From Nitrospirillum viridazoti CBAmc (GTDB lineage Bacteria; Pseudomonadota; Alphaproteobacteria; Azospirillales; Azospirillaceae): a stretch of 64,000 bases of DNA. A program made the position numbers and the translations under genes. Each line of letters starts with the position of its first letter. Position 1 is the first letter of the stretch. Shown one piece after another: positions 22,595-34,927 of the stretch. The notes beneath the pieces are model-generated. The model saw nothing but the letters and a program-made list of their open reading frames with translations. It made no database searches and had not been told where the DNA came from. The stretch is from assembly GCF_000730165.1 (NCBI RefSeq), contig NZ_CP022110.1, positions 2,549,501 through 2,613,500 of the forward strand. The letters run 5' to 3'.

Positions 22595-22628
22595 CAAAAG
22601 AAAAGGGCGGACAGTCGCCTGCCCGCCC
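22595..22628 (-). terminator. Terminator of the arabinofuranosidase-DUF885 operon
   Basis: On the minus strand, GGGCGG and CAG pair with CTG and CCGCCC around a GCGA loop with one internal mismatch, followed by TTTTCTTTTG. It begins 26 bp after the DUF885 stop codon. Confidence 0.85.
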
Positions 22629-22654
22629 GTGGTCACTCAGGCCCCAGCGGTTGC

Positions 22655-24487
22655 CTATTGCGCCGGGTAGGGGCTCTTGCCGCCCTCGGCGATGAAGCGG
22701 TCGATGCGGGCCTCCAGCACCGGCAACGGCACGCCGCCCAGTTTCAGCACCGTGTCGTGGAAGTTGCGCAGGTCGAACTTCGGGCCCAGCGCCTTCTCCG
22801 CCTTGGCGCGGGCCTTCAGGATGGCCATCTCGCCCAGGTAGTAGGACAAGGCCTGACCAGGCCACGCGATATAGCGGTCGACCTCGGTCTCGATCTCGTG
22901 ATCGGCCAGGGCGGTGTTGTCGTGCAGGTACTGCTGCGCCTGCTCGCGCGTCCAGCCCTTGGCATGGATGCCGGTGTCGACCACCAGGCGGGCGGCGCGC
23001 CACATCTGATAGCTCAGCATGCCGAAGCGCTCATAGGGCGTCTCGTACATGCCCATCTCCTCGCCCAGCTTCTCGCAGTACAGGGCCCAGCCTTCGCCGA
23101 AGGCGGAGATGTAGACCTTCTGCCGAAACTCCGGCTGGTCCTTCTGTTCCGCCGCGATGGGCATCTGGAAGGCGTGGCCCGGGGCCGATTCATGCAGCGT
23201 CAGGGCCGGCAGGGCGTACAGGCCGCGCGACGGCAGATCGTAGGTGTTGACCAGATACACGCCCGGGCCGCCCCGGCCGGAGGTGTAGAAGGGTGCTATG
23301 TCCGCCGGCACCGGGATGATGGCGAAGCGCGAGCGCGGCAGGTAGCCGAAGTACTGGTCCGCCTTGCCGTCGAACTTCTTGGCGATCCAGGCCGCCCGCA
23401 TCAGCAGCTCTTCCGGGGTCTTGGCGTAGAACTGGGGATCGGTGCGCAGGAACTTCAGGAAGGCGGGGAAATCACCCTGGAAGTTGGCCTGTTTCATCAC
23501 GTCCAGCATCTGGGCGTGGATCTTCGCCACCTCTTCCAGGCCGATCTTGTGGATCTGGTCCGCCGTCAGGTCGACGGTGGCGAACTCCTTGATCTTGGAT
23601 TGGTAGTAGGCCTTGCCGTCGGGCAGGGATTCCGCCGCCAGCTCGGTGCGGGCGCCGGGGATGTACTCCTCGCGCATGAACTTCAGCAGGGCCTGGTGGG
23701 CCGGCACCACCGACCTGGTGATGGCGGCCACGGCGGCGGCGCGCAGTTCCGCCTGGGTCGCGGCCGGGATGGTGTCCGGCATCGTCTTGAACGGCGTGTA
23801 GTAGACGTTGTCTTCCGGCGTCTTGGCCTCGACCACGTTCACAATGCCGCTGTCGCGGCCGGTCAGCGTCACCTTGGGCGGGGTGAAGCCACGCTTCAGG
23901 CCGGCGCGCATGTTCACGATCTGCTCGCCGAAATAGCGTGGCATGTCGTTCAGCTGGCCGATGAAGGCCTTGTATTCCGCCACCGTGTGGAAGGGCTTGC
24001 GCGCGCCGCCGGCCATGTTGGACCAGAACGAGCTGTCGGCGTTCAGCGGCTTTTCATAGTCCTTGAACTTCTGGCTGTTCAGCAGCACCGTCACCTGGTC
24101 ACGGTAGATGCTGAAATCCACTTGCGCCTCGGGCGACAGGTCGGCCTGGGGGATGGCCGCCAGGTCCTTCAGGACGCCTTCCCAGACCTTCTGCCGCTTT
24201 TCCTGGGTGGCGGCGTCCACCTTGGGCAGGTGGCCGGCGACGGTGTCCGTGCTGTCCTCGTCATCCTCGCCCTTGAACTCCTCCTGACGCCACTTCCATT
24301 CCTTGGTGTAGATCGCCTTGAACTGGGCGTCGGCCTTGCCCGTCACGGCACCAGGGGCGGTTGCGGCATGGGCCACACCGAAGACGGGGGCGGTTGTGGT
24401 GGCCTGACCCAGGGTCAGAACACCGGCGAACAGGGCGGTGCCGACCAGCAGGCGGGCGGCCAAACGTCTTGAAGGCAAGCGGTACAT
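22655..24487 (-). CDS. DUF885 family putative zinc peptidase, exported
   Basis: A 610-residue protein with an N-terminal signal sequence (LAARLLVGTALFAGVLTLGQA), so probably periplasmic. The DUF885 core carries LTLHESAPGHAFQ near residue 428, a HExxxGH metal-binding motif, and GEGWALYCEKLGEEMG near residue 465, which supplies a further acidic ligand; both match metallopeptidase-like DUF885 proteins. The start was set at 24487 because that ATG overlaps the stop of the upstream arabinofuranosidase gene (TGATG), a strong sign of translational coupling. Its place in a hydroxyproline-peptide regulon suggests it cleaves peptides from deglycosylated cell-wall protein. That substrate is inference. 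A terminator follows. Confidence 0.85.
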   Translation of the reverse strand: MYRLPSRRLAARLLVGTALFAGVLTLGQATTTAPVFGVAHAATAPGAVTGKADAQFKAIYTKEWKWRQEEFKGEDDEDSTDTVAGHLPKVDAATQEKRQKVWEGVLKDLAAIPQADLSPEAQVDFSIYRDQVTVLLNSQKFKDYEKPLNADSSFWSNMAGGARKPFHTVAEYKAFIGQLNDMPRYFGEQIVNMRAGLKRGFTPPKVTLTGRDSGIVNVVEAKTPEDNVYYTPFKTMPDTIPAATQAELRAAAVAAITRSVVPAHQALLKFMREEYIPGARTELAAESLPDGKAYYQSKIKEFATVDLTADQIHKIGLEEVAKIHAQMLDVMKQANFQGDFPAFLKFLRTDPQFYAKTPEELLMRAAWIAKKFDGKADQYFGYLPRSRFAIIPVPADIAPFYTSGRGGPGVYLVNTYDLPSRGLYALPALTLHESAPGHAFQMPIAAEQKDQPEFRQKVYISAFGEGWALYCEKLGEEMGMYETPYERFGMLSYQMWRAARLVVDTGIHAKGWTREQAQQYLHDNTALADHEIETEVDRYIAWPGQALSYYLGEMAILKARAKAEKALGPKFDLRNFHDTVLKLGGVPLPVLEARIDRFIAEGGKSPYPAQ

Positions 24488-26934
24488 CAGATAGGCGCTC
24501 CCTGAGAGGCTGATGCTGCGACGACGCGGCACCCGAAGACGGGCCCCGCGGAGTAGCCGGTTTCCGGCTCGAAACGGACGACGACGGTGGACTTGCCCGC
24601 CGTCAGGTTGGCGGGGATGGGGTATTCCACGTCAAAGAACTCACCCGGCCGCTCCGCGTCCAGCTTTTGCGTGGCGATGCGGGTGCCGTCGACCAGGATG
24701 TGGAACAGGCGCTTGCGCTCATCGCCCCAATATGTCGCCTGCAGCACCATGGCGCCGCCGCGGACCTTGGCCTTGAACTCGAAGAAGCCGCCGGTGCGGG
24801 CGTCGCGTCCGTTCCGGCCGCGATAGGTCACGGGGTAGGAGATCTTGGCCTCCAGCCCATGATCGCGTTCCGGCTGCATCTCACCCAGGTGCATGACGTC
24901 GACGGAACGCGCCTGGATGTCGCGCTGGCGGGCCGCCTCCTGCGCCAGGGCCGCCTCTGCCGTCTTCCACTGCGCCTCGGTGTAGCGCTTGAAGTAAACG
25001 GCCGTGCGCCGGGTGTACTGCTGGTAGAAGGGCTTGAACTCCATGTCGCCCGGGCGACCGATGCCGGTGGTGCGCCACACCAGCGCGTCGGGCGTCGCCC
25101 GCTGGAAACCGTCCAGGACGGAAGCCGAGACCAGGGCCGGCGCCGGGCCCTGGAAGGCGTCGGAGACAGGCGTGGGCTGGGGCGAGCCGGTGGGCGCCTC
25201 GCTCTTGGGCGCGGCGCCCAGGTCGGCGGCCAGTACCAGGGGGCCGTGCAGGAAGGCCACGGTGTCGGCGTCGTCGTTGGTGGATTCCAGGCGCAGGGCC
25301 ATGGGCAGGCGCAGGGCGACGGCGTCGCCCGCCTTCCATTCCCGCCGCACGACGGCGTAGCCGTTCTGCAACTGCAGGTCCTGCGGTTTGCCGTTCACCG
25401 CCAGGGTGGCGCCGGTGCACCAGGCCGGGATGCGGAAGCTGACCGCGAAGGTGGCGGGACGCTTCAGCGCCTTCAGCGTCAGCAGCACCGTCTCAGCTTC
25501 CGGATAGCGGGTGTCGAGGTCGACCACCGCCCCCCGCTCCGCCCAGGTGAGGGTGGAAGGGATGTAGAGGTTGACGGCCAAATCCTCCGCACCGCGCTTC
25601 CAATAGACGCTCTCGCCATGCTTGGCGTGGCTTTCCATGCCGGTGCCGACGCAGCACCAGAAATCTTCCGTGGGCGTGGAGAATTCGCGCGCCGAGCCGG
25701 ACATCAGTGGCGTCATGTAGGTGAACATGCCGGTGGCCGGGTTCTGCTGCGCCAGCACGTGATTCAGGTGCGCGCGCTCGTAGAAGTCGAAGTAGTGCGC
25801 GTCGGCCTGGCGGGCGTACAGCAGGCGGGTCAGCTTCAGCATGTTGTAGCTGTTGCAGCCCTCGCAGGTCTGTTCGGTGATGTGGCGGGAGATGCTGCGC
25901 GGTGCCTGGAAATACTCCCGGTCCGCGTTGCCGCCGATGACATAGGAATGGTTGGTGGTGACCGTCTGCCAGAAGAAGGCGGAGGCCTTGGCGTGGCGCT
26001 CGGACCCCGTCAGCTCCGCCAGGCGGGCCAGGCCGATCAGCTTGGGGATCTGGGTGTTGGCGTGGATGTTGGCCAGCTCATCCCGGCCTTCCGACAGGGG
26101 CACCAGCACCTTGGCATGGTAGAGACGCTCGGCCAGCAGCAGCCAGCGCCGGTCGCCCGTGCGGGCGTACAGCTCGGCGAAGCTCTCGTTGATGCCGCCG
26201 TGCTCGCAGTCCAGCACCTTCTGGACCTGCTCGTCATTCAGGTGGCTGAACACCTCATCGATGTAGCCACCCAGCTTGACGCCCACATCCAGGGCCTGGG
26301 TGTTGCCGCACAGGGTCTGGGCGTCGAACAGGCCGGTGTAAAGCTTGTGCCAGTTGTACAGCGGCACCCAGCAGCCGTTGAGGTCGAAGCCGGCGGAGCG
26401 GATCTCGCCGCGCCGCAGCTCATCGAACACGACCTTGCCGTCCTCGACGATGTCGCCGCGCTTGCGGGTGAAGCCGGCGACATAGCCGTCGCCCTGGGCC
26501 TTCTGGCAGTCCGCCAGCTCGGCCACGATGTAGTCCACCCGCCGCTTGCACTCGGCATCGCCGGTCTGGGCGTGCATCAGGGACAGCGCGCTCAAATAAT
26601 GGCCCAAGGTGTGGCCGGCGATGGTATCGCCTTCCCAGCCACCATAGGCAGCGCCCTTGGGCTGTAGGCCGGTGCCGCTGCGGAAATTATGCAGCAGGCG
26701 GTCGGCCTCCAGGCTGTGCAGATAGGCCAGGTTGGCGTCCACCGCCGCCTTGAAGGGCGATGGCTTCAGGCGCACGGCCGACAGGGGAAAGGGTTCGGCG
26801 GTGCCGGTGTCGAGCGCCGGCACCAAGGGGGCGGCCACCGCCGGCACGGCCATCAGTGCAGCGGCCGAGGCCGCACCGCGCAGGATGGTGCGCCGGGACA
26901 CCGTTTGCCCGGAGGGGGCGCTGAAGGTTGCCAT
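24487..26934 (-). CDS. GH127/GH146 beta-L-arabinofuranosidase with Tat-type signal
   Basis: An 815-residue exported glycosidase (DUF1680 fold). The N-terminus has a twin-arginine signal (SRRTILRGAASAAALMAVPAVA). The alpha/alpha-barrel starts ~60 (AYLHSLEADRLLHNFR, GWEGDTIAGHTLGHYLSA). The zinc-cysteine active site of characterised GH127 enzymes is intact: HITEQTCEGCNSYNM near residue 355 supplies Glu and Cys, and EDFWCCVGTGMESHAKHGES near 425 supplies the Cys pair that includes the nucleophile. The C-terminal ~120 residues look like the accessory beta domain of longer GH146-like enzymes. These enzymes remove beta-L-arabinofuranose from hydroxyproline-linked arabinans of plant extensins or from pectin. 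It heads an operon with the DUF885 gene, and a GGATAC-type operator lies 140 bp upstream. GH127 versus GH146 is not resolved. Confidence 0.9.
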   Translation of the reverse strand: MATFSAPSGQTVSRRTILRGAASAAALMAVPAVAAPLVPALDTGTAEPFPLSAVRLKPSPFKAAVDANLAYLHSLEADRLLHNFRSGTGLQPKGAAYGGWEGDTIAGHTLGHYLSALSLMHAQTGDAECKRRVDYIVAELADCQKAQGDGYVAGFTRKRGDIVEDGKVVFDELRRGEIRSAGFDLNGCWVPLYNWHKLYTGLFDAQTLCGNTQALDVGVKLGGYIDEVFSHLNDEQVQKVLDCEHGGINESFAELYARTGDRRWLLLAERLYHAKVLVPLSEGRDELANIHANTQIPKLIGLARLAELTGSERHAKASAFFWQTVTTNHSYVIGGNADREYFQAPRSISRHITEQTCEGCNSYNMLKLTRLLYARQADAHYFDFYERAHLNHVLAQQNPATGMFTYMTPLMSGSAREFSTPTEDFWCCVGTGMESHAKHGESVYWKRGAEDLAVNLYIPSTLTWAERGAVVDLDTRYPEAETVLLTLKALKRPATFAVSFRIPAWCTGATLAVNGKPQDLQLQNGYAVVRREWKAGDAVALRLPMALRLESTNDDADTVAFLHGPLVLAADLGAAPKSEAPTGSPQPTPVSDAFQGPAPALVSASVLDGFQRATPDALVWRTTGIGRPGDMEFKPFYQQYTRRTAVYFKRYTEAQWKTAEAALAQEAARQRDIQARSVDVMHLGEMQPERDHGLEAKISYPVTYRGRNGRDARTGGFFEFKAKVRGGAMVLQATYWGDERKRLFHILVDGTRIATQKLDAERPGEFFDVEYPIPANLTAGKSTVVVRFEPETGYSAGPVFGCRVVAASASQGAPI

Positions 26935-27073
26935 GGGACTGTCTCCCAGATCGCGCACCATACCTTAAGCCCCTGTGTTCTTGATTGTTATGTCTTGGGT
27001 CCGCACGCAGACGCGCCGGATCACCGGCGAGGACGCCAGCGGAGCAAAGGGACCCAACTGCCAAGCTATTTTG

Positions 27074-27086
27074 GGATACTGTATAC
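27074..27086. promoter_or_regulatory. GntR-type operator upstream of the arabinofuranosidase
   Basis: GGATACTGTATAC is the same interrupted palindrome as the sites at 28485 and 34010 (consensus GGATAC-NN-TATMC), with one arm base changed. It lies in the AT-rich promoter region between the convergent end of the oxidase gene and the start of the arabinofuranosidase gene. A further GTATACGATAC overlaps it. Confidence 0.65.
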
Positions 27087-27155
27087 GATACTGCATCATA
27101 GAGAACTACGCCTCCGGTCATAGGACGGAAGTAGGTCCCGCCAAAGGGACGGCCT

Positions 27156-28466
27156 TCAGGAAAAGCGGTCCAGCGCCATGGCCGGATCGGGCAGCGCCCG
27201 GCCGGCGACGATGTCGGCCATGCGCCGCGCACTGACGGCCGCAAGGGTCAAGCCCAGATGCTGGTGGCCGCAGGCGGCGTAGAGGCCGGGATGGCGGCGG
27301 CTGGCGTCCAGCATGGGCAGGTAGTCGGGCAGGCTGGGGCGGCAGCCGGTCCACTCCGAACTTTCCGCCCCCGGGGTCATCAGGCCGACCTCGCGCAGAT
27401 GGTGGCGCAGCAGCGCCGGGCGGCGGGGATCGGGCGCGTCATCCGGCCCGCTGAAATCGGTGAAGCTGGTGGCGCGCAGGCCCATGGTCATGGGCGTCAC
27501 GATGATGGTGCGGTTCTCGAACACCACCGGCCGGTCCAAGAGGGGCGTGTTGGATCCCGAGTCGCCCGGTACCACCACGTGATAACCCCGCTCCGCGATC
27601 ATGGGCACGCGATAGCCCAGCGGTTCCAGCAGCGATCCGGAGTCCACACCCAGCGCCACCAGCACGGCATCGGCGCGGATGACGCCGCCGGCATGGCGCA
27701 GGCGCCAGCTGACACCATTCCCGCCCTGGCCGCTCTCCAGCCCCTGGATGTCGGCCTTTTCGATGCGCCCGCCGCGCGCGACGAAGGCGACGGCCAAGTC
27801 CTGGGTCAGGCCGAAGGGGTCGTTGACATGGCCGGTGCCGGTATAGGTCATACCCCCTGTGACACGCTGCCGCAGGGCATGGGGCAGGTCGGGCCAATCG
27901 CCCGGGTTGGGACCCCAGGGGGTGACGGGCACGCCCAGGCCCCGGGCGGCGGCGACGGACGCGGCGATGGCGGCCTCGGGCGCGGTACTTTCCCAGACGC
28001 TATGGTGACCCCGCGTCTGCAGGCGCGCTTCCGCGCCGGTGCCCACCAGCAGGGTGCGCCAGTCCTGGATGACGGTTTCGATCAGGCCGGACAACACCGC
28101 CGTGCCGTGGGCGTGCGCCCGGGGCAGGCAGGCGCCCAGGAAATCCCTGGCCCAGCCGCGCGCCAGGATGGGCAGGGCCCCCTTTCGGATGCCCAGGGGG
28201 CCCCCAGACTTCAGCAACAGGCCCGGCACGCGCCGCAAGGTGGCGAAAGAGGCCAGTGGCAACAACTGTTCCGTGGCGATGTGGCCGGCGTTACCGTAGG
28301 AACATCCACGCCCCGGTTCATCCCGGTCGATCAGGATGACGTCATGCCCATCGCGCACCAAGGCCAGCGCCGTGGCGGTGCCCACCACGCCGGCACCCAC
28401 CACCGCGATGGTGCCGGATCCTGGCCGGAACGGCATGGGTGGGTTGCTGACATCGGCGACAGGCAT
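27156..28466 (-). CDS. FAD-dependent D-amino acid oxidase/dehydrogenase, likely for cis-4-hydroxy-D-proline
   Basis: A 436-residue DAO-family flavoenzyme. It has an N-terminal Rossmann fold with TIAVVGAGVVGTATALALVRDGHDVILIDRDE (GxGxxG and the ribose-binding acid), then a substrate-binding domain. C-terminal FAD contacts include EWTGCRPSLPDYLPML and YAACGHQHLGLTLA, as in DadA-like proteins. Next to a hydroxyproline 2-epimerase and a pyrroline-hydroxycarboxylate deaminase, it most likely oxidises cis-4-hydroxy-D-proline to delta-1-pyrroline-4-hydroxy-2-carboxylate. It is divergent from the deaminase gene, and their shared operator at 28485 is only 19 bp from its ATG. AAGGGA upstream is the likely ribosome binding site. 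Class is firm; substrate is inferred from neighbours. Confidence 0.87.
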   Translation of the reverse strand: MPVADVSNPPMPFRPGSGTIAVVGAGVVGTATALALVRDGHDVILIDRDEPGRGCSYGNAGHIATEQLLPLASFATLRRVPGLLLKSGGPLGIRKGALPILARGWARDFLGACLPRAHAHGTAVLSGLIETVIQDWRTLLVGTGAEARLQTRGHHSVWESTAPEAAIAASVAAARGLGVPVTPWGPNPGDWPDLPHALRQRVTGGMTYTGTGHVNDPFGLTQDLAVAFVARGGRIEKADIQGLESGQGGNGVSWRLRHAGGVIRADAVLVALGVDSGSLLEPLGYRVPMIAERGYHVVVPGDSGSNTPLLDRPVVFENRTIIVTPMTMGLRATSFTDFSGPDDAPDPRRPALLRHHLREVGLMTPGAESSEWTGCRPSLPDYLPMLDASRRHPGLYAACGHQHLGLTLAAVSARRMADIVAGRALPDPAMALDRFS

Positions 28467-28478
28467 GTGCAGAGTCCC

Positions 28479-28506
28479 TTGATTGGATACAATATCCCAT
28501 TATACT
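28479..28506 (+). promoter_or_regulatory. Promoter of the deaminase gene with operator in the spacer
   Basis: A -35-like TTGATT (28479-28484) and a -10-like TATACT (28501-28506) are 16 bp apart. The operator GGATACAATATCC (28485-28497) occupies the spacer, so bound regulator would block RNA polymerase. Confidence 0.55.
28485..28497. promoter_or_regulatory. GntR-type operator between oxidase and deaminase genes
   Basis: GGATA-CAA-TATCC is a perfect 5-3-5 palindrome in the divergent region between the D-hydroxyproline oxidase (minus) and the deaminase (plus). The same arms recur at 34010, and with one change at 27074. Confidence 0.72.
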
Positions 28507-28564
28507 ATCTGTCACGGCGCTTCCCGACAAGCGCGTATGGCGGAAACGTGAAAGGTTTTAAGAG

Positions 28565-29467
28565 ATGTCCCTGCCCAACTGGCGCGGTGTGTTCCCCGCG
28601 GTGACCACGCAGTTCAACGAAGACCTCAGCATCAACCTGGCGGAAACCCAGCGGGTGATCGACGGCCTGATCCGCGACGGCGTGCACGGCCTGATCATCA
28701 TGGGCACCGTGGGCGAAAACAACTCTCTGGAACCGGAAGAGAAGCGCCAGGTGCTGGCCGCCGCCAAGGAAGTGACCGCCGGCCGCGTGCCCGTGATCAC
28801 CGGCGTGTCGGAACTGACGACGCCGCGCGCCGTCGCCTATGCCAAGGACGCGGAGAAGATCGGCGCCGACGGCCTGATGCTGCTGCCGGCCATGGTCTAC
28901 GTGCCCACCGAGGAAGAGCTGTTCCGCCACTTCGCCGCCGTCGCCGGCGCCTCGGCCCTGCCCATCATGCTGTACAACAACCCGCCGGCCTACCGCGTGG
29001 ACATCAGCGTCCCGCTGCTGCAGCGCCTGGCGGAGATCCCGACCATCGTGGCGCTGAAGGAATCGGCCCCCGACACCCGCCGTTTCACCGACCTGGCCAA
29101 CGCCATCGATGAGACGAAGATGATGCTGATGGCAGGATTGGACGACGTCGCCCTGGAAGGCCTGCTGCTGGGCGCCAAGGGCTGGATCTCCGGCCTGACC
29201 AACGCCTTCCCCAAGGAATCGGTGGCGCTGTACGACGCCGTCGTCGCCGGCGATCTGGCCAAGGCCCGCGCCATCTACCGCTGGTTCCTGCCGCTGCTGC
29301 ACCTGGACGCCCGCCACGACCTGGTGCAGAGCATCAAGTTGGCCGAGCAAGTCATGGGCCGTGGTTCCGAGCGCGTGCGCCCGCCGCGCTACATCCTGGA
29401 AGGCCAGACCCGCGCCGACGTGATCGCCATGGTCGAGAAGGCGGCGGCCACCCGTCCGAGTCTGTAA
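28565..29467 (+). CDS. DapA-family pyrroline-4-hydroxy-2-carboxylate deaminase
   Basis: A 300-residue Schiff-base aldolase-fold enzyme of the dihydrodipicolinate synthase family. The catalytic Lys165 (IVALKES) and Tyr137 (IMLYNNP) are present. The usual DapA motif GTTGES is GTVGEN here, as I recall for hydroxyproline-pathway deaminases. The predicted reaction converts delta-1-pyrroline-4-hydroxy-2-carboxylate to alpha-ketoglutarate semialdehyde plus ammonia. The gene is divergent from the oxidase and followed by the 2-epimerase. The ATG has an AAAGG-type ribosome binding site. The next step, alpha-ketoglutarate semialdehyde dehydrogenase, is not encoded in this window. An ordinary dapA role is unlikely given this context. 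Confidence 0.88.
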   Translation: MSLPNWRGVFPAVTTQFNEDLSINLAETQRVIDGLIRDGVHGLIIMGTVGENNSLEPEEKRQVLAAAKEVTAGRVPVITGVSELTTPRAVAYAKDAEKIGADGLMLLPAMVYVPTEEELFRHFAAVAGASALPIMLYNNPPAYRVDISVPLLQRLAEIPTIVALKESAPDTRRFTDLANAIDETKMMLMAGLDDVALEGLLLGAKGWISGLTNAFPKESVALYDAVVAGDLAKARAIYRWFLPLLHLDARHDLVQSIKLAEQVMGRGSERVRPPRYILEGQTRADVIAMVEKAAATRPSL

Positions 29468-29474
29468 GTAGTTC

Positions 29475-29562
29475 CCTCAAACGCCGGGCGCCGGCATCCG
29501 CCGGCTTGGCTTGTCCTCGCTGCGCCCTTCGGTGCTCGCTCCGGCGCCTGCGGTCGCAGGCT
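29475..29562 (+). repeat. Dispersed intergenic repeat, copy C
   Basis: Plus-strand copy reading CCCTCAAACGCCGGGCG, GCATCCGCCGG, GCGCCCTTCGGTGCTCGCT and GCGGTCGCAGGC. It sits inside the deaminase-epimerase operon, followed directly by the long hairpin at 29564. Confidence 0.7.
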
Positions 29563-29563
29563 A

Positions 29564-29599
29564 GCGAGGCTGGATCTGGGGAACCAGGTCCAGCCTCGC
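29564..29599 (+). repeat. 16-bp hairpin with GGAA tetraloop in the hydroxyproline operon
   Basis: GCGAGGCTGGATCTGG (29564-29579) and CCAGGTCCAGCCTCGC (29584-29599) pair at 15 of 16 positions, the mismatch being a possible G-U, around GGAA, a GNRA-type loop. No T-run follows, so it is not a classical terminator. It lies 54 bp before the epimerase ATG and may affect mRNA stability or coupling. Confidence 0.6.
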
Positions 29600-29652
29600 G
29601 AGTACCTCCAGAGTTCGTGTTGTTCCCACCGTCTGCCTCAAGGCCTGATGCC

Positions 29653-30699
29653 ATGACCACCGCCCCCAGCGTTCCGACCGGCGATCCCGTTCTGCCCACG
29701 GGCCGCCAGACCTTCGCCTGCATCGACGGGCACACCTGCGGCAACCCGGTACGGCTGGTCATGGGCGGCCATCCGCCCCTGGTGGGCGCCACCATGAGCG
29801 AGAAGCGCCAGGACTTCCTGTCGCGCTTCGACTGGATCCGCACGGCGCTGTGCTTTGAGCCGCGCGGCCACGACATGATGTCGGGCGGCTTCGTCTACCC
29901 GCCCTGCAGCCCGGAGGCCGACGCCTCCATCCTGTTCATCGAGACCTCGGGCTGCCTGCCCATGTGCGGCCACGGCACCATCGGCATGGTGACCTTCGCG
30001 CTGGAGCACGGCCTGATCCGCCCGCGCACGCCGGGCAAGCTGGTGCTGGACGTGCCCGCCGGCCAGATTGGCGTCGAGTATGAGAGGACGGCCGGCAAGG
30101 TGAACTGGGTGCGGCTGTTCAACATCGACAGCTTCCTGTTCACCAAGGGCGTCACCATCGAGGTGCCGGAGCTGGGCCCCCTCACCCTGGACATCAGCTA
30201 CGGCGGCAATTTCTACGGCATCATCGAGCCGCAAGGCGCCTACAAGGGCATCGATGACTTGGGCTCTCAGAAGATCATTCACTACAGCGGCCTGGTGCGG
30301 CAGCTGGTGCGGGAGAAGATCACCCCCGTCCATCCGCTGGACAGCACCATCCGGGGCCTGAGCCATGTGATGTGGGTGGACAAGCCCAAGCACAAGGACG
30401 CCCACGGTCGCAACGCCGTGTTCTACGGCGACCGCGCCATCGACCGGTCGCCCTGCGGCACCGGCACCTCCGCCCGCATGGCCCATTTGGCCGCCCAGGG
30501 CAAGCTGGCCGTCGGCCAGAGCTTCGTGCATGAGAGCATCATCGGCAGCCTGTTCGAAGGCCGCGTGGAAAGCGCCGGCACGCTGGGCGATTACGCCAGC
30601 ATCCGCCCGTCCATCAAGGGCTGGGCGGTGCAGACCGGGCTCAACACCATTTACGTCGACCCCACCCAGGATCCGTTCTGGCGTGGCTTCCAGGTCTAA
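29653..30699 (+). CDS. 4-hydroxyproline 2-epimerase
   Basis: A 348-residue cofactor-independent enzyme of the proline racemase family, converting trans-4-hydroxy-L-proline to cis-4-hydroxy-D-proline. Both catalytic cysteines are present: Cys105 in CLPMCGHGTIG and Cys268 in DRSPCGTGTSARMA. Trans-3-hydroxyproline dehydratases of this family replace one of them, so a dehydratase is unlikely. The substrate-side segment FACIDGHTCGNPVR is typical. The ATG at 29653 gives an N-terminus near the conserved domain; upstream in-frame codons run through the repeat and hairpin. Downstream of the deaminase it feeds the oxidase. A terminator follows at 30748. Confidence 0.92.
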   Translation: MTTAPSVPTGDPVLPTGRQTFACIDGHTCGNPVRLVMGGHPPLVGATMSEKRQDFLSRFDWIRTALCFEPRGHDMMSGGFVYPPCSPEADASILFIETSGCLPMCGHGTIGMVTFALEHGLIRPRTPGKLVLDVPAGQIGVEYERTAGKVNWVRLFNIDSFLFTKGVTIEVPELGPLTLDISYGGNFYGIIEPQGAYKGIDDLGSQKIIHYSGLVRQLVREKITPVHPLDSTIRGLSHVMWVDKPKHKDAHGRNAVFYGDRAIDRSPCGTGTSARMAHLAAQGKLAVGQSFVHESIIGSLFEGRVESAGTLGDYASIRPSIKGWAVQTGLNTIYVDPTQDPFWRGFQV

Positions 30700-30747
30700 G
30701 TCCCGAGCCTGACTTAGATCTGGCGTTTCCTCCCAAGGCACATCCTC

Positions 30748-30780
30748 AAGGGCCGGCCCGCAAGGACCGGCCCTTCTTTT
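30748..30780 (+). terminator. Rho-independent terminator after the epimerase gene
   Basis: A perfect 9-bp stem AAGGGCCGG/CCGGCCCTT with a 10-nt loop is followed by CTTTT. It lies 48 bp after the epimerase stop. Confidence 0.88.
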
Positions 30781-30829
30781 ATGTGTCGCTCAATTCCAGT
30801 CTCCAGCCCAGCGGCATGAGCCGGGGAGG

Positions 30830-30938
30830 CTCATGCCGTAGGCTGCGACCGCAGCCGCCGGAAGTTTCCGGGGAGCGTCAGCGGACTGGAAACTGAGGAC
30901 AAGCCAAGGGGCGGATGCCCCACCGGCACCTGAGGCGA
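30830..30938 (-). repeat. Dispersed intergenic repeat, copy D (diverged centre)
   Basis: Read on the minus strand: CCTCAGGTGCCGG, GGGCATCCGCCCCTTGGC, TTGTCCTCAG, then GGCGGCTGCGGTCGCAGCC. The ends match copies A, B, C and E. The central CGCCCTTCGG block is replaced by a different inverted pair, AGTTTCC/GGAAACT. It lies between the convergent epimerase and Xaa-Pro peptidase genes. Confidence 0.55.
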
Positions 30939-30941
30939 CCG

Positions 30942-32159
30942 TCAGCCATGCAGCCCGAAGGGGTTGTCCACATCCGTCGGCGGAACGGTGAACCAGCGGG
31001 GGCCGTCTTCGGTCATGTAGACGTGGTCCTCGAAGCGCACGCCGAACTTGCCGTAGAGGCACAGCATGGGCTCCACGCTGAAGCACAGGCCGGCCTCCAG
31101 CGGCTGCTTGTTGCCGCCGACGATGTAGGCGGGCTCGTGCAGGTCCAGGCCCACGCCGTGGCCGGTGCGGTGGGGGCAGCCGGGCACCTGATAGCCGGGG
31201 CCATAGCCGCGGGACTCCAGGAAGCTGCGGGCGGCCTGGTCCACCGCCTCGCACGGAACGCCGATCCGGGCGGCGTTGAAGGCCGCCATCTGGGCGTCGC
31301 GCTCATCCTCCCACACCCGGCGGTATTCGGGGGTGGCGTGGCCGAAGGTATAGCAGCGGGTGATGTCGGACTTGTAGCCCTCGATGGCGCAGCCGGTGTC
31401 GATCAGGACGGGGTCGCCCTCTTTCAGGAACCAGTCGCCGGGGGCGCCGTGGGGATAGGCCGTGGCCTCGCCGAACTGCACGGCGCAGAAGGTGTTGCCG
31501 CCGTCAGCCCCCAGTGCGCGGTGGGCCTGGCCGATGAAGGCCACCACCTCCGCCGGGGTGATGCCGGGGCGCAGGATGCCGGCGGCCAGGCGGTGGACCT
31601 CCAGCGTCAGGGCCTTGGCATGGGACAGCAGGGCGATCTCATGCGCCGACTTCACCCGGCGGCAGGCCTCCGTCAGGGGGCGGGCATCCACCAGGGTGGC
31701 CTGGGGCAGCGCCGTTGCAAGGTCGAAGAACACGCCGGCATAGCCCAGGGCGTCCACCGCCACCGTGGCGCTGCCGCCGGACTGGCCGCGCACCAGGTCC
31801 GCCACCAGGGCGTAGGCGCTTTCATCCTCCTGCCAGGTGCGCACTTCATCACCCACGGTGATATGGCCGCGCAGCTTGGGCTCCTCGAACGCCGGGCAGA
31901 CATAGACGGGGTCGCCGTCCTTCAGGATCACGGCCGCCGTCAGCCGCTCGCTGGGGTGCCAGTCCAGGCCGGTGAAGTAGAGGAGGTTGCTGGACGCCGG
32001 CAGCAGCAGGGCATCCACCTTGCGCGCCGCCAGGTAGGCCCGCACCGCCTCGATGCGGGCGCGGTATTCATCCGCCGTGATGGGCTGCACCGCCGCCCGC
32101 CGGGACTTCAAGGTCGACAGCACCGCCGGGGCCGACAGCCCCCCAATACCCTTGGTCAT
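30942..32159 (-). CDS. M24B Xaa-Pro peptidase
   Basis: A 405-residue two-domain metallopeptidase: a creatinase-type N-domain (~30-165) and an M24 pita-bread catalytic domain (~170-395). All five metal ligands are visible: Asp254 (VLIDTGC), Asp265 (YKSDITRCY), His334 (TGHGVGLDLHE), Glu363 (FSVEPML) and Glu377 (VRFEDHVY). No signal peptide is seen, so it acts in the cytoplasm. Enzymes of this group release the residue before proline, or split Xaa-Pro dipeptides. It lies 31 bp downstream of the POT transporter gene, in one operon under the 34010 operator. It would thus free hydroxyproline from imported Xaa-Hyp peptides, which is inference from context. Confidence 0.9.
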   Translation of the reverse strand: MTKGIGGLSAPAVLSTLKSRRAAVQPITADEYRARIEAVRAYLAARKVDALLLPASSNLLYFTGLDWHPSERLTAAVILKDGDPVYVCPAFEEPKLRGHITVGDEVRTWQEDESAYALVADLVRGQSGGSATVAVDALGYAGVFFDLATALPQATLVDARPLTEACRRVKSAHEIALLSHAKALTLEVHRLAAGILRPGITPAEVVAFIGQAHRALGADGGNTFCAVQFGEATAYPHGAPGDWFLKEGDPVLIDTGCAIEGYKSDITRCYTFGHATPEYRRVWEDERDAQMAAFNAARIGVPCEAVDQAARSFLESRGYGPGYQVPGCPHRTGHGVGLDLHEPAYIVGGNKQPLEAGLCFSVEPMLCLYGKFGVRFEDHVYMTEDGPRWFTVPPTDVDNPFGLHG

Positions 32160-32190
32160 GGTCTCAAACCCGCTTCTCTGGGATCACACA

Positions 32191-33927
32191 CTAATCATTC
32201 AGGCGGCGCAGCGGCACCACCAGCAACAGCAGCAGCACGGCCGCGGCGCAGGACCACAAGCCGGCCTTGAGGTACACCGCCTGGTATGAGGCCAGCTGCA
32301 CCGCCGCCGGCAGGCTGCCGTCCACCACCGTGGCCTGGGCCACCAGCGCGCTCAGGCGCTGGCCATAGGCCGTGGACAGGAACCACAGGCCCACCAGCAG
32401 GCTGGTGATGGCCGGCGGCGACAGGCGGGTGATGGAGGACAGGCCGATGGGGGACAGGCACAGCTCCCCCACCTCCTGCAGCAGATAGAGCGACAGCAGC
32501 CAGGCCACGCCCACGCGCAGGCCCGCCGGCGTCACCTCGATGCCGAAGGCCAGCGCCAGGAAGCCCAGGCCGACGAACAGCACACCCAAGCCGAACTTGG
32601 TCACCGGGCCGGGGTCGCGGCGATGGCCGTCCAGCCAGCGCCACAGGGCCGCCAGCGGCAGGGCCAGCAGGATGACGAAGGCCTTGTCCGGGAACTGCAG
32701 CACCGGGGCCGGCACCAGCACCGGGCCGATGTGGCGGTCCGTCCACTCGGCGGCGAAGACGTTCAAGGACGCCGGCCCCTGGTAGAACAGGGTCCAGTAC
32801 AGCACCGACACCAGCATGAGCAGCAGCAGCAGCGCCAGGTGGCGGCGCTGGCGCGCGTCGCAGCGGCGGGCGAACCAGAAGACGGCGGCCAGGCCGGCCA
32901 CGGCGGCGAGGTCCAGCACATGGCCCACCACCGTCGGATGATCGACGATCAGCCAGGCCCCCAGCGCCACCGCCAAGCCGCCGGCCAGGGCCAGCAGGCC
33001 ACCCGGCCCACCGCTGGCGGCACGGGGGCCGCCCTCGGCCGCGGGGAGTTCGGGCGGCAGCAGGCGGCGGCCCAGGGAGAAGGTGGCCAACGCCACGGCC
33101 ATGCCGATGCCGGCCGCGCCAAAGCCCCATTCCCAGCCCAGCGCGGCGCCCAGCCAGCCGCAGACGATGCTGCCCATCAGGCCGCCGGCGTTGATGCCCA
33201 GGTAGAAGATCAGGAAGCCACGGTCGCGCGCGGCGTGGCGCTGGCCGTACAGGCGGCCGACCAGGGCGGAGATGTTGGGCTTCAGCATGCCCACGCCGGC
33301 GGCGATGAGGGCCAGCGACAGGTAGAACAGCTTCAGCCCGCCGGCGTCCGGTGTCTTTTCCAGGCGTCCCCGCAGGGTGACGGCGGCGCCGTCGGGGCCG
33401 ACGTAGGTCAGTGTGCGGGCATCCGGGTCGGCACCCTGGACGCTGGCCAGGCTGGTGATGACTTGGGCCGTGCCGTTCACCACCACCTGGCGGGCGCCGT
33501 CCTCCCCCTCCGCGGGATAGAGGATGGGCCGTTTCAGGTCGTAGGTGACCTCGGGCGTCACCAGCCGTTCCACCGTCTGCACTGGCTGCCAGGCCATGAG
33601 GCCGTGGCCCAGCATCAGCAGCACGGCACCGGCCCGCACGGCGTGGCGGGCCCCCACCCAGCGGTCAGCCATGAAGCCGCCGACCACCGGGCACATATAG
33701 ACCAGGACGCCGAAGGCCCCCAGCTCGGCATAGGCCGACACCTTGTCCATGGACAGGTGCCACAGCAGGAAGAAGATCAGGATGGACTGCAGGCCGTAGT
33801 AGGAGAACCGCTCCCAGAACTCGACCGCGAACAGCAGGTAGAGGCCGGGAGGATGGCCGCCATCGTGGTCTTCAGGCGCCACCGCTGGGCCGCTTACCGG
33901 GCTGTCCGCCCCCGCCATCACCGCCAT
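32191..33927 (-). CDS. POT family peptide transporter with a periplasmic insert
   Basis: A 578-residue proton-coupled oligopeptide transporter. Helix 1 contains VEFWERFSYYGLQSIL with the ExxER motif (residues 36-40), and later GVGMLKPNISALVG and GFLIFYLGINAGG match PTR signatures. An ~80-residue hydrophilic, beta-rich segment (114-196) separates helix 3 from helix 4, a loop that faces the periplasm in this fold; the other POT protein in this window lacks it. The start at MAVMAGADS was chosen because upstream in-frame codons run through the promoter and operator. It heads an operon with the Xaa-Pro peptidase. A TTGACA and a GGATAC operator lie 80-105 bp upstream. Likely substrates are hydroxyproline-containing di- or tripeptides. 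Confidence 0.88.
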   Translation of the reverse strand: MAVMAGADSPVSGPAVAPEDHDGGHPPGLYLLFAVEFWERFSYYGLQSILIFFLLWHLSMDKVSAYAELGAFGVLVYMCPVVGGFMADRWVGARHAVRAGAVLLMLGHGLMAWQPVQTVERLVTPEVTYDLKRPILYPAEGEDGARQVVVNGTAQVITSLASVQGADPDARTLTYVGPDGAAVTLRGRLEKTPDAGGLKLFYLSLALIAAGVGMLKPNISALVGRLYGQRHAARDRGFLIFYLGINAGGLMGSIVCGWLGAALGWEWGFGAAGIGMAVALATFSLGRRLLPPELPAAEGGPRAASGGPGGLLALAGGLAVALGAWLIVDHPTVVGHVLDLAAVAGLAAVFWFARRCDARQRRHLALLLLLMLVSVLYWTLFYQGPASLNVFAAEWTDRHIGPVLVPAPVLQFPDKAFVILLALPLAALWRWLDGHRRDPGPVTKFGLGVLFVGLGFLALAFGIEVTPAGLRVGVAWLLSLYLLQEVGELCLSPIGLSSITRLSPPAITSLLVGLWFLSTAYGQRLSALVAQATVVDGSLPAAVQLASYQAVYLKAGLWSCAAAVLLLLLVVPLRRLND

Positions 33928-34009
33928 GCCCTGCCCGTCCCCGTTGTCGTCGAATGGATGCGCCAGGGTATCATGCCCGTGGGGTGCCCTGGTGGGGTGA
34001 TAGCGTATC

Positions 34010-34022
34010 GGATACGATATCC
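34010..34022. promoter_or_regulatory. GntR-type operator upstream of the POT-peptidase operon
   Basis: GGATA-CGA-TATCC has the same arms as the 28485 site. On the minus strand a consensus -35 TTGACA lies at 34032-34027, immediately upstream, so the operator occupies the promoter spacer. It overlaps a second small palindrome, GTATC-G-GATAC. Confidence 0.72.
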
Positions 34023-34187
34023 AAACTGTCAAGCATAGCGCCACCGGCACCCATTCTGGCATCCGGACGGACGGCGGGGAATGCTATCGCTTGAGGCTGA
34101 ACGGGAACTAGACCGGGCCATGCACCAACTGCCCATGGCGCGGCACCTCCGAACCGTCTAGCGTATTTTAGAAAATCAATTGCTTTT

Positions 34188-34206
34188 ACATCCGATATCA
34201 GGATGT
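34188..34206. promoter_or_regulatory. Palindrome upstream of the GntR gene
   Basis: ACATCC-GATATCA-GGATGT has perfect 6-bp arms and lies 59 bp before the gntR ATG in an AT-rich stretch. It shares GATATC with the other operators but not their full consensus. It could be an autoregulatory site with altered geometry. Confidence 0.4.
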
Positions 34207-34264
34207 TCAGAGGCAAATCACAGGGCCGTCTTTTCCAATCCGCACCCCGTCAAGAAGCCACCAA

Positions 34265-34927
34265 ATGATCGCACGCGCTAAGATCGAACGGAAATCCCTG
34301 TCGGCCCAGGTGGTTGACGCCTTGCGGCAGATGATCCTGTCCGGGGAATACGCGCTGGGTGCCCAGCTGCGGCAGGATGAAATCGCACAGAAGCTGGGGG
34401 TCAGCCGCATCCCCGTACGCGAAGCGCTGCAGCAGCTGGAGGCGGAAGGCTTGGTGGCCACCATCCCCTACAAGGGCTCGGTCGTGGCCCAGCTGTCGCC
34501 CGCCCAGGTGCGGGAATATTTCGAGGTGCGGCTGCTGCTGGAAATCGATCTGCTGCGCCGCGCCATCCCGCAGCTGAGCGCGAAGCAGATCAAGAAGGCC
34601 GAAGCCGTGCTGAAGGAGATGCATGCCGCCGAGGCCAGCCGCTGGGGGGCGTTGAACTGGCAACTGCATGAGGCGTTGTACGAGCCGGCCCAGCGCCCGG
34701 TGATGCTGGACATGGTGAAGCGAATCCACGACAGCCTGGACCGTTATGTCCGGCTGCACCTGTCCATGACCCCCGCCATCCACGATCGCTCCATGGATGA
34801 GCACGAGCAGCTGGTAGCCCTGTGCCGCGACGGCAAGGGCGATGAGGCGGTGGAGATGCTGCGCACCCACCTGACCCATGCGCTGGAGGAACTGGTGGTA
34901 TTCCTGGAAGGGCAAGAGGCGGCTTAG
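34265..34927 (+). CDS. GntR family (FCD) regulator of the hydroxyproline cluster
   Basis: A 220-residue FadR-like regulator. The winged helix-turn-helix is at ~10-75 (LRQMILSGEYALGAQLRQDE, LGVSRIPVREALQQLEAEGLV). The all-helical FCD ligand domain (~85-210) has the usual metal/carboxylate-binding pattern (LNWQLHEALYE, DEHEQLVALCRDG). It sits at the edge of the hydroxyproline/arabinofuranosidase genes, divergent from the POT-peptidase operon, and is the obvious candidate to bind the three GGATAC-NN-TATMC sites. Ligand unknown; a pathway intermediate such as hydroxyproline or the pyrroline carboxylate is likely. Confidence 0.9.
   Translation: MIARAKIERKSLSAQVVDALRQMILSGEYALGAQLRQDEIAQKLGVSRIPVREALQQLEAEGLVATIPYKGSVVAQLSPAQVREYFEVRLLLEIDLLRRAIPQLSAKQIKKAEAVLKEMHAAEASRWGALNWQLHEALYEPAQRPVMLDMVKRIHDSLDRYVRLHLSMTPAIHDRSMDEHEQLVALCRDGKGDEAVEMLRTHLTHALEELVVFLEGQEAA

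What the first reader, a model, noticed from the sequence alone, without database searches (positions are those of the whole stretch)
22595..34927. A single GntR regulon for hydroxyproline-rich plant glycoproteins, from sugar stripping to central metabolism
One 12 kb block links an exported GH127/GH146 beta-L-arabinofuranosidase, an exported DUF885 peptidase, a POT peptide importer, a Xaa-Pro peptidase, and three consecutive hydroxyproline-pathway enzymes (2-epimerase, D-hydroxyproline oxidase/dehydrogenase, pyrroline-hydroxycarboxylate deaminase) with a GntR regulator. Extensins carry beta-L-arabinofuranose on hydroxyproline, so the set covers removal of the glycan, peptide cleavage, uptake, release of hydroxyproline and its breakdown. 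The enzymes are known singly; I am not aware of a described locus that joins the arabinofuranosidase, peptide import and hydroxyproline catabolism under one operator. The last step, alpha-ketoglutarate semialdehyde dehydrogenase, is missing here and must be elsewhere.
Basis: partly seen in the sequence, partly recalled or inferred. Interest (0 to 1): 0.88.

Follow-up and report, generated by a model that had tools for sequence, protein, structure and literature searches.

The report
Plant hydroxyproline-glycoprotein utilisation regulon
A plant-associated bacterium appears to carry, in separate parts of its genome, one jointly switched gene set for stripping sugars from hydroxyproline-rich plant cell-wall proteins, cutting and importing the peptides and burning the hydroxyproline, and a matching DNA switch occurs at similar genes in distantly related bacteria.

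Summary
A shared operator is real: GGATAYNRTATMC lies upstream of the GH127/146-DUF885, oxidase/deaminase-epimerase and POT-M24 units in 7 of 7 genomes, and 36 of 39 distinct sites in the genus are at these units or at S10, M1, S9 peptidase or DUF5695 genes. In 75 related loci outside the genus the fuller form TATCGTATACGATA occurs 73 times at up to 2 mismatches (12 permuted control palindromes: at most 4), and 33 of the 75 hold a hydroxyproline epimerase or deaminase beside GH127. A second cluster on contig C2 holds a TonB receptor, amino-acid permease, GH51, alpha-galactosidase and another GntR, with a candidate semialdehyde dehydrogenase 10 kb off. Corrections: the local GntR is not close to S. 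meliloti HypR nor the counterpart of the regulator in related loci (that one is on C2), so which GntR reads the operator is open; the deaminase is named by context only. A new variant of the known HypR-type hydroxyproline regulon, extended to plant glycoproteins. No experiment was done.

The parts
22655..24532 (-). DUF885 protein with a signal-like N-terminus (read by eye), predicted exported peptidase, second gene of the GH127 operon
   Evidence: PF05960 E 4.6e-154; overlaps the GH127 gene; found in the 7 genus genomes
24487..26961 (-). GH127/GH146 beta-L-arabinofuranosidase with a twin-Arg-like leader (read by eye); nearest solved structure 5opj (BT0349, GH146). Zn/nucleophile residues E367, C369, C436, C437 kept; E349 as likely acid/base (guess from position)
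   Evidence: PF07944 E 1.1e-126; 5opj E 3e-142; invariant columns in 9 sequences; residues read out
27077..27090 (.). Operator of GH127-DUF885 (TACTGTATACGATA, 2 mismatches to the cross-order consensus; 13-mer form at 27074-27086)
   Evidence: GGATAYNRTATMC form at this promoter in 7 of 7 genus genomes
27156..28466 (-). DAO-family FAD oxidoreductase, predicted D-hydroxyproline dehydrogenase/oxidase
   Evidence: PF01266 E 9.8e-49; 33% to the DAO-family gene of the S. meliloti hyp locus; role by context
28481..28497 (.). Operator between the divergent oxidase and deaminase genes (GGATACAATATCC at 28485-28497), inside the 16-nt spacer of a sigma-70-like promoter TTGATT (28479-28484) ... TATACT (28501-28506)
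   Evidence: (identical in 7 of 7 genomes)
28565..29467 (+). DHDPS-family enzyme, predicted 1-pyrroline-4-hydroxy-2-carboxylate deaminase (by context; distinct subfamily)
   Evidence: PF00701; 33% to S. meliloti HypD, 29-30% to the A. brasilense candidate L-KDA dehydratase
29653..30699 (+). trans-4-hydroxy-L-proline 2-epimerase, both catalytic Cys present (C105, C268 from this start)
   Evidence: NF010578 537 bits, cut-off 376
30942..32159 (-). M24 peptidase, predicted cytoplasmic Xaa-Pro (Xaa-Hyp) peptidase
   Evidence: PF00557, PF01321
32191..33927 (-). POT-family proton-coupled peptide importer (start corrected from 34062)
   Evidence: PF00854, TIGR00924 308 bits; operator lies inside the longer frame
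34006..34022 (.). Operator of POT-M24, between POT and gntR (TATCGGATACGATA 34006-34019; GGATACGATATCC 34010-34022), beside a TTGACA hexamer on the minus strand
   Evidence: identical in the 6 genomes aligned and present in G001; no full promoter pair found by the scan
34265..34927 (+). GntR-FCD regulator, candidate reader of the operator; of another lineage than S. meliloti HypR and the GntR of related loci
   Evidence: PF00392, PF07729; tree

Best explanation
The block is the core of a repressor-controlled regulon for using hydroxyproline-rich plant glycoproteins (extensins, probably also arabinogalactan proteins). Exported GH127/146 removes beta-L-arabinofuranose from hydroxyproline, helped by a GH51-type enzyme and an alpha-galactosidase encoded on contig C2; exported peptidases (DUF885 here; S10, M1, S9 elsewhere under the same operator) cut the bared protein; the POT carrier (and a TonB receptor plus amino-acid permease on C2) imports peptides or hydroxyproline; the M24 peptidase frees hydroxyproline; epimerase, oxidase and deaminase turn it into alpha-ketoglutarate semialdehyde, oxidised by a dehydrogenase encoded on C2. 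A GntR-FCD protein sits on the operator (ATATCGTATACGATAT type), which overlaps at least one promoter, and lets go when hydroxyproline or a breakdown product is present. Shown by computation: the genes, the operator, its conservation and the set of genes that bear it. Inferred: export, substrates, effector, repression, and which GntR.
For: Gene families. Block found in 7 of 7 genus genomes. Operator at the three units in 7 of 7 genomes. 36 of 39 distinct genus sites lie at these units (21) or before S10 (4), M1 (4), DUF5695 (6) or S9 (1) genes (counted by hand; genes). In 75 loci outside the genus: 33 hold epimerase or deaminase, 29 at least two of the three pathway genes, 49 DUF885, 26 DUF5695, 8 S10; the window's outer neighbours RmuC, isochorismatase and TetR are in 0. 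TATCGTATACGATA there: 24/73/125 hits at up to 1/2/3 mismatches, against at most 1/4/23 for 12 permuted palindromes, near projected starts of deaminase 27 of 30, DAO 26 of 30, GH127 37 of 73, TBDR 9 of 11, DUF5695 10 of 26. GH27 alpha-galactosidase and GH43 genes occur in 10 and 13 of the 79 loci. Contig C2 holds homologues of the related loci's TBDR (62%), permease (78%), GH27 (57%) and GntR (68%). The TBDR promoter block is invariant in the 6 genomes aligned. The operator fills the spacer of a deaminase promoter.
Against: No expression or binding data. GH127/146 enzymes also act on other beta-L-Araf glycans (Bll3HypBA1 on arabinogalactan proteins and arabinan, PMC10850190). The local GntR is of another lineage than the regulators of the related loci. 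Deaminase and oxidase are only about 33% identical to the S. meliloti ones. The own semialdehyde dehydrogenase has no good operator. HypE, M24, APC and POT starts carry no operator in relatives (0 of 27, 27, 24 and 5), as expected only if they are downstream genes. 42 of the 75 loci hold neither epimerase nor deaminase in the flanks fetched, some of which end early; 16 of 16 Duganella loci have no hydroxyproline genes. Of 28 other-genus genomes of the family searched only one (G026) has a close GH127 (62%; two more have weak matches), and in G046 (49%) none of the other block genes is near it. S10 and M1 bear the site in 4 of 7 genomes each. gntR has no conserved site of its own. The 75 loci are not phylogenetically independent.
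Confidence: 0.72

Rival explanations
1. The operator is read by the GntR encoded on contig C2 (C2:613595-614233), not by the GntR in the window; the window GntR is a paralogue of other duty or one of two partners.
For: C2 GntR is 68% identical to the regulator of the G026 locus and found in 7 of 7 genus genomes; it sits with homologues of the TBDR, permease and GH27 genes of related loci; the window GntR groups with TRAP-linked GntRs of S. meliloti and B. multivorans instead (support 94/81, just under the tool's mark).
Against: The window GntR is kept beside POT in 7 of 7 genus genomes; the genus operator (GGATACNATATCC) differs somewhat from the cross-order one, as a new regulator would explain.
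Confidence: 0.45
2. The regulon is a general plant cell-wall scavenging set (arabinan, arabinogalactan protein, pectin side chains) in which hydroxyproline use is one branch; GH127/146 and DUF5695 act mainly on arabinogalactan or arabinan.
For: Nearest solved GH is BT0349 (GH146); DUF5695 is nearest PL27 L-rhamnose-alpha-1,4-glucuronate lyase, an enzyme acting on gum arabic; GH43 in relatives and a GH51-type enzyme on C2, the GH43 matching beta-xylosidase/arabinofuranosidase structures.
Against: XeHypBA1, called GH127 in PMC6085000 and GH146 in PMC10850190, cleaves Ara-Hyp; in the genus the other operator-bearing genes found are peptidases, a peptide carrier, hydroxyproline genes and an alpha/beta hydrolase; arabinogalactan proteins are themselves hydroxyproline-rich (recalled).
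Confidence: 0.3
3. The DHDPS-family gene is an L-2-keto-3-deoxyarabonate dehydratase for the released arabinose (or does both jobs), so that arabinose and hydroxyproline converge on alpha-ketoglutarate semialdehyde.
For: 72% identical to an R. etli protein whose neighbours include L-arabinonate dehydratase; characterised L-KDA dehydratases are annotated as DHDPS-family (PMC7374468, passage); this query has only three hits in the genome, none in the C2 cluster with Gfo/Idh, IlvD/Edd and the dehydrogenase.
Against: Only 29-30% to the A. brasilense candidate of that function; in relatives it sits beside the epimerase or oxidase, though arabinose pathway genes were not searched for there.
Confidence: 0.2
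4. The set serves animal-type or generic proline/hydroxyproline peptides (collagen), as in Shewanella and Streptomyces HypR regulons, and the arabinofuranosidase is an accident of position.
For: Known HypR regulons include collagenases, prolidases and a di/tripeptide permease (PMC5343134 section 11; PMC6608401).
Against: GH127 has its own operator in 7 of 7 genus genomes and in 37 of 73 relatives; no M9 collagenase hit in the genome, but no control genome rang in that search, so it proves little.
Confidence: 0.07

Closest known systems
HypR regulons of Proteobacteria (PMC5343134, section 11 and passages read)
   Same: GntR-family regulator; epimerase, oxidase, deaminase core; in Alteromonadales and Aeromonas extended upstream to secreted collagenases, proline peptidases and a di/tripeptide permease
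   Different: Section 11 names no glycosidase and the term arabinofuranosidase does not occur in the main text; the window GntR is 27% to S. meliloti HypR and that hyp locus has no such operator at up to 3 mismatches; deaminase and oxidase are distant
HypR of Streptomyces coelicolor (PMC6608401; abstract, sections 20 and 25 and passages read)
   Same: GntR-FCD repressor of a Hyp operon and of a predicted secreted collagenase; induced by L-Hyp
   Different: operator CTNTGC(A/C)ATGTCAC, unlike TATCGTATACGATA; no glycosidase in its table of regulon proteins; collagen proposed as substrate
HypAA/HypBA1/HypBA2 sets of Bifidobacterium longum and Xanthomonas euvesicatoria (PMC6085000, abstract and passages read)
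   Same: an enzyme of the same clan frees arabinose from Ara-Hyp; a broken prolyl oligopeptidase gene beside the Xanthomonas genes is noted
   Different: an arabinose-releasing set; no hydroxyproline breakdown in the passages seen; the Xanthomonas hypBA2-AA operon is upregulated by HrpX
PL27 L-rhamnose-alpha-1,4-glucuronate lyase BACCELL_00875 (for the DUF5695 protein)
   Same: profile E 2.1e-11 over part of the length and Foldseek E 1e-23, TM 0.61 by target; beta-sandwich plus helical part
   Different: 16% identity; model of mean pLDDT 59; activity untested

Membership tests
HypR-type hydroxyproline regulon | Epimerase, D-Hyp oxidase and deaminase genes with a GntR gene and a shared operator | tested here: met
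   control by a GntR is inferred from the operator only
HypR-type hydroxyproline regulon | Regulator orthologous to S. meliloti HypR | tested here: not met
   27% to HypR (gene named by position and family); 44% to a different S. meliloti GntR; S. meliloti chromosome not searched
HypR-type hydroxyproline regulon | Induction by hydroxyproline | not testable with these tools
   needs expression data
4-hydroxyproline 2-epimerase | Score over the curated cut-off and two catalytic Cys | tested here: met
   NF010578 537 bits, cut-off 376; C105, C268
GH127/GH146 cysteine glycosidases | Catalytic domain and Zn site Glu-x-Cys, Cys-Cys | tested here: met
   PF07944; E367, C369, C436, C437
GH146 rather than GH127 | Closer to BT0349 than to HypBA1 | tested here: met
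   5opj E 3e-142 against 3wkw E 3.5e-11; no CAZy tree made; that 5opj is BT0349 is recalled
Aceric acid hydrolase (GH127 subgroup) | NF049879 cut-off | tested here: not met
   93.8 bits, cut-off 950
S. meliloti-type HypD deaminase | Same subfamily as HypD/LhpC-type enzymes | tested here: not met
   33% and 30%, while the S. meliloti and B. multivorans enzymes are 74% alike
alpha-Ketoglutarate semialdehyde dehydrogenase (C2 candidate) | Curated family score | tested here: inconclusive
   no NCBIfam model over its cut-off among those listed; 61-62% to the ALDH of related hyp loci, which is 53% to the ALDH of the S. meliloti hyp locus
PL27 (DUF5695 protein) | Lyase activity on Rha-GlcA | not testable with these tools
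   distant profile and fold match only

The most novel reading that the evidence does not exclude
A widespread, so far undescribed two-sided regulon for plant hydroxyproline glycoproteins, conserved by operator across Azospirillales, Sphingomonadales, Caulobacterales and Peristeroidobacter, in which sugar part (arabinose) and protein part (hydroxyproline) are stripped together and meet at alpha-ketoglutarate semialdehyde, with DUF5695 as a new carbohydrate-active family of the set and, in Nitrospirillum, the regulator swapped for a GntR of another lineage.
Probability: 0.35. Interest if true: 0.82.

Novelty: new variant of a known kind. Interest (0 to 1): 0.7.

Why it matters
Extensins and arabinogalactan proteins are abundant in plant cell walls and are laid down in defence, yet how plant-associated bacteria use the protein part is little described (general knowledge). 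If true, this gives a defined, testable route from cell-wall glycoprotein to central metabolism in a plant-associated bacterium, an operator with which to find it in other genomes, and candidate functions for DUF885, DUF5695, an S10 peptidase and an alpha/beta hydrolase.

Tried and rejected
An operator at the gntR start (ATCCGATATCAGGAT, seen by eye near 34190) was dropped: not conserved across the genus. Of the 39 distinct genus sites three were set aside as lying inside other frames: G000:C2:1662467, G002:C13:64711, G001:C130:2373. Of the eight one-mismatch sites only two were looked at: C3:175605, which is the DUF5695 site, and C4:45477, which lies in a very long frame. TATTGCATACGATA, in 6 of 7 genomes, was followed: it precedes an alpha/beta hydrolase in the two genomes read, with relatives in 5 loci at 55-61%. 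A G005-only site (C3:1693800) had no regulon-like neighbour. The first palindrome scan of relatives gave some meaningless positions near contig ends; it served only to spot the motif, counted afresh. M9 collagenase absence is inconclusive because no control genome rang. The DUF5695 model is of modest quality. The second, distant GH127-like gene of the genus (L034-L040) was not studied.

Papers: PMC6608401 (abstract, sections 20 and 25, passages), PMC5343134 (section 11, passages), PMC6085000 (abstract, passages), PMC10850190, PMC8377490, PMC7374468 and PMC4495286 (passages). Others were seen in search listings only, among them the single hit, PMC12542648, on another subject, which was not opened. 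That the S. meliloti HypR and HypD are the genes found in L186/L188 rests on position and family, gene names recalled; those records carry no annotation.

Corrected from my draft: the identity range of related GntRs (30-40%), the number of loci without epimerase or deaminase (42 of 75), and 'contig' for 'replicon'.
Full report
WHAT IS THERE. The window is part of a 7.38 Mb genome in four contigs, which are probably replicons. The closest GH127 relatives retrieved by name (92-99%) are three Nitrospirillum amazonense strains and 'Azospirillum sp. B4', so the genus is taken to be Nitrospirillum; this is inference. The eight genes of the block were confirmed by Pfam and NCBIfam. The epimerase passes its curated cut-off (537 against 376 bits) and has both catalytic cysteines. 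The glycosidase is nearest to 5opj (BT0349, GH146; E 3e-142) and much further from the GH127 enzyme 3wkw (E 3.5e-11); its Zn-site residues E367, C369, C436 and C437 are invariant in the nine sequences aligned. GH127 and DUF885 overlap, POT and M24 are 31 bp apart, deaminase and epimerase are codirectional, and the oxidase is divergent from the deaminase. The POT start should be moved to 33927, since the longer frame runs through the operator. Export is judged from leader sequences by eye.

CONSERVATION IN THE GENUS. tblastn found all eight genes in five further genus genomes; in the sixth, G001, epimerase to DUF885 are on one contig and GntR, POT and M24 (cut by the contig end) on another. The oxidase/deaminase operator GGATACAATATCC is identical in 7 of 7, the POT operator GGATACGATATCC in the 6 aligned and in G001, and the GH127 promoter carries GGATAYNRTATMC in 7 of 7. 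Outside the genus the gene is rare in the family: of 28 genomes of other genera one (G026) has a close GH127 (62%), two have weak matches. G026 has TBDR, GntR, DUF885, permease, GH127 and epimerase together on one 11-kb contig. In G046, of another family, none of the other block genes lies near its GH127 (49%).

THE REGULON IN THE GENUS. GGATACNATATCC occurs five times in the own genome, two of them in the window. With GGATAYNRTATMC, seven genomes give 64 match rows (palindromes count on both strands) against 7 for the reversed pattern. Counted by hand these are 39 distinct places: 21 at the three window units, 4 before a serine carboxypeptidase (S10), 4 before an M1 aminopeptidase, 6 before a DUF5695 protein, 1 before an S9 dipeptidyl peptidase (G004 only), and 3 inside other frames (Pfam on the own S10, M1 and DUF5695 and on the G004 S9 protein). 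Most trans sites are thus at peptidases or a carbohydrate-active-like protein with leader-like starts. S10 and M1 have the site in 4 of 7 genomes each, DUF5695 in 6 of 7. A further site, TATTGCATACGATA, recurs in 6 of 7 genomes and lies before an alpha/beta hydrolase in the two read.

OTHER ORDERS. One scan with the GH127 alignment returned 79 loci, four of the genus and 75 outside it. Of the 75, 33 hold an epimerase or deaminase, 29 at least two of oxidase, deaminase and epimerase, 49 DUF885, 35 a GntR, 27 M24, 27 an amino-acid permease, 26 DUF5695, 16 a TonB receptor, 8 S10, 5 POT; RmuC, isochorismatase and TetR, the window's outer neighbours, occur in none. 42 hold neither epimerase nor deaminase in the flank fetched. 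Clustering of neighbour proteins over the 79 loci added Ldh_2 (26 loci), S9 (15), GH43 (13), alpha-galactosidase GH27 (10), an aldehyde dehydrogenase (9) and gamma-glutamyltranspeptidase (7). 16 of 16 Duganella loci lack hydroxyproline genes, and only one of them (L135) has a site at GH127.

THE OPERATOR ACROSS ORDERS. Perfect palindromes TATCGTATACGATA were seen before oxidase, deaminase, GntR, GH127 and DUF5695 genes of relatives. Over the 75 loci (1.58 Mb) the 14-mer gives 24, 73 and 125 hits at up to 1, 2 and 3 mismatches; 12 palindromes of permuted half-sites give at most 1, 4 and 23, and Markov shuffles predict 1.0 and 13.3 for the last two. Within -60 to 300 bp of projected starts, at up to 3 mismatches, it is found at deaminase 27 of 30, DAO 26 of 30, GH127 37 of 73, DUF5695 10 of 26, TBDR 9 of 11, Ldh_2 8 of 31, GntR 7 of 33, S9 6 of 16, DUF885 5 of 48, S10 2 of 8, dehydrogenase 2 of 9, GH43 1 of 13, GH27 1 of 11, and at none of 27 HypE, 27 M24, 24 permease and 5 POT starts. 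Of the 37 GH127 sites, 19 are in the 33 loci with epimerase or deaminase and 18 in loci without, so the glycosidase carries the operator also where the pathway is not next to it. Loci of one genus count several times; the counts are not independent events. The window sites are 1 (POT), 2 (GH127) and 4 (oxidase/deaminase) mismatches from this consensus.

TWO CLUSTERS AND TWO REGULATORS. In the tree the window GntR groups with TRAP-transporter-linked GntRs of S. meliloti and B. multivorans (44-47% identity; support 94/81), while 28 GntR rows of related loci are 30-40% identical to it and S. meliloti HypR 27%. The counterpart of the related loci's regulator is on contig C2 (68% to that of G026) and is found in 7 of 7 genus genomes. 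Next to it lie a TonB receptor (62%), an amino-acid permease (78%), a GH51-type arabinofuranosidase and an alpha-galactosidase (57%). About 10 kb before that receptor gene is a cluster with the best candidate for the missing dehydrogenase (C2:592094-593638, 62%, 674 bits; next hit 71 bits), a Gfo/Idh oxidoreductase, an IlvD/Edd dehydratase and a sugar ABC transporter, resembling the annotated A. brasilense stretch taken here as its arabinose cluster. No curated model listed names the dehydrogenase. The TBDR promoter has an invariant block with two ATACGATAT half-sites in the 6 genomes aligned. No good operator was found before the dehydrogenase. So the regulon is larger than the block, and which GntR reads the window operators is open.

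HOW IT LIKELY WORKS. The operator fills the 16-nt spacer of a sigma-70-like promoter of the deaminase and lies next to a TTGACA hexamer before POT, where the scan found no full promoter; this geometry fits repression. The effector may be hydroxyproline or a downstream metabolite, by analogy with S. coelicolor HypR, where L-Hyp induced the genes but did not change binding in vitro (PMC6608401). Deglycosylation, peptide cutting, uptake and breakdown follow from the families; substrates are inferred. XeHypBA1, called GH127 in PMC6085000 and GH146 in PMC10850190, frees arabinose from Ara-Hyp.

UNCERTAIN STEPS. The DHDPS-family gene is 72% identical to an R. etli protein with L-arabinonate dehydratase among its neighbours but only 33% to S. 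meliloti HypD, 30% to a B. multivorans enzyme near oxidoreductase genes like those of a three-part D-Hyp dehydrogenase, and 29-30% to the A. brasilense candidate L-KDA dehydratase. Its role rests on its neighbours. DUF5695 matches PL27 BACCELL_00875 by profile (E 2.1e-11, over part of the length) and by fold (Foldseek E 1e-23) on a model of mean pLDDT 59; it is a plausible carbohydrate-active enzyme, no more.

COMPARISON AND NOVELTY. HypR regulons that reach upstream to collagenases, proline peptidases and di/tripeptide permeases are described (PMC5343134 section 11; PMC6608401), and so is the arabinose side (PMC6085000). A locus or operator joining beta-L-arabinofuranosidase with hydroxyproline breakdown was not found in the open-access library with the searches; most subscription papers are not held. 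It is therefore taken as a new variant of a known kind: the plant-glycoprotein counterpart of the collagen-type HypR regulon, with a regulator that did not pass as a HypR orthologue.

Noticed in passing
L182:10018-11166 (G000:C2:1730017-1731165): alpha/beta hydrolase with a leader-like N-terminus and an operator-like TATTGCATACGATA just before its likely start; the site recurs in 6 of 7 genus genomes (gene read in two) and relatives of the protein sit in 5 of the related loci.
   Followed up: partly
L044:4759-7569 (G000:C3) and 26 of 75 related loci: DUF5695 protein under the operator; distant match to a PL27 lyase by profile and fold: a candidate new carbohydrate-active family.
   Followed up: partly
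L041:3944-6652: A tyrosinase-domain protein and a small protein directly upstream of the operator-bearing S10 peptidase gene; possible link to tyrosine-cross-linked extensins, untested.
   Followed up: no
L034-L040 (e.g. G000:C4:30017-30976): A second, distant GH127-like protein (30-33% over part of its length) in 7 of 7 genus genomes.
   Followed up: no
L081:5351-7819 (G004:C3): S9 dipeptidyl peptidase IV-like protein with the operator, the site seen only in G004; S9 genes also sit in 15 of the 79 related loci.
   Followed up: partly
L140, L147, L156: Two different GntR genes side by side in Asticcacaulis loci, one with an operator-like site.
   Followed up: no
L187:8989-9900 (R. etli p42c): DHDPS-family protein 72% identical to the window deaminase, near L-arabinonate dehydratase and a GntR gene; its substrate would tell the function of the subfamily.
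   Followed up: partly
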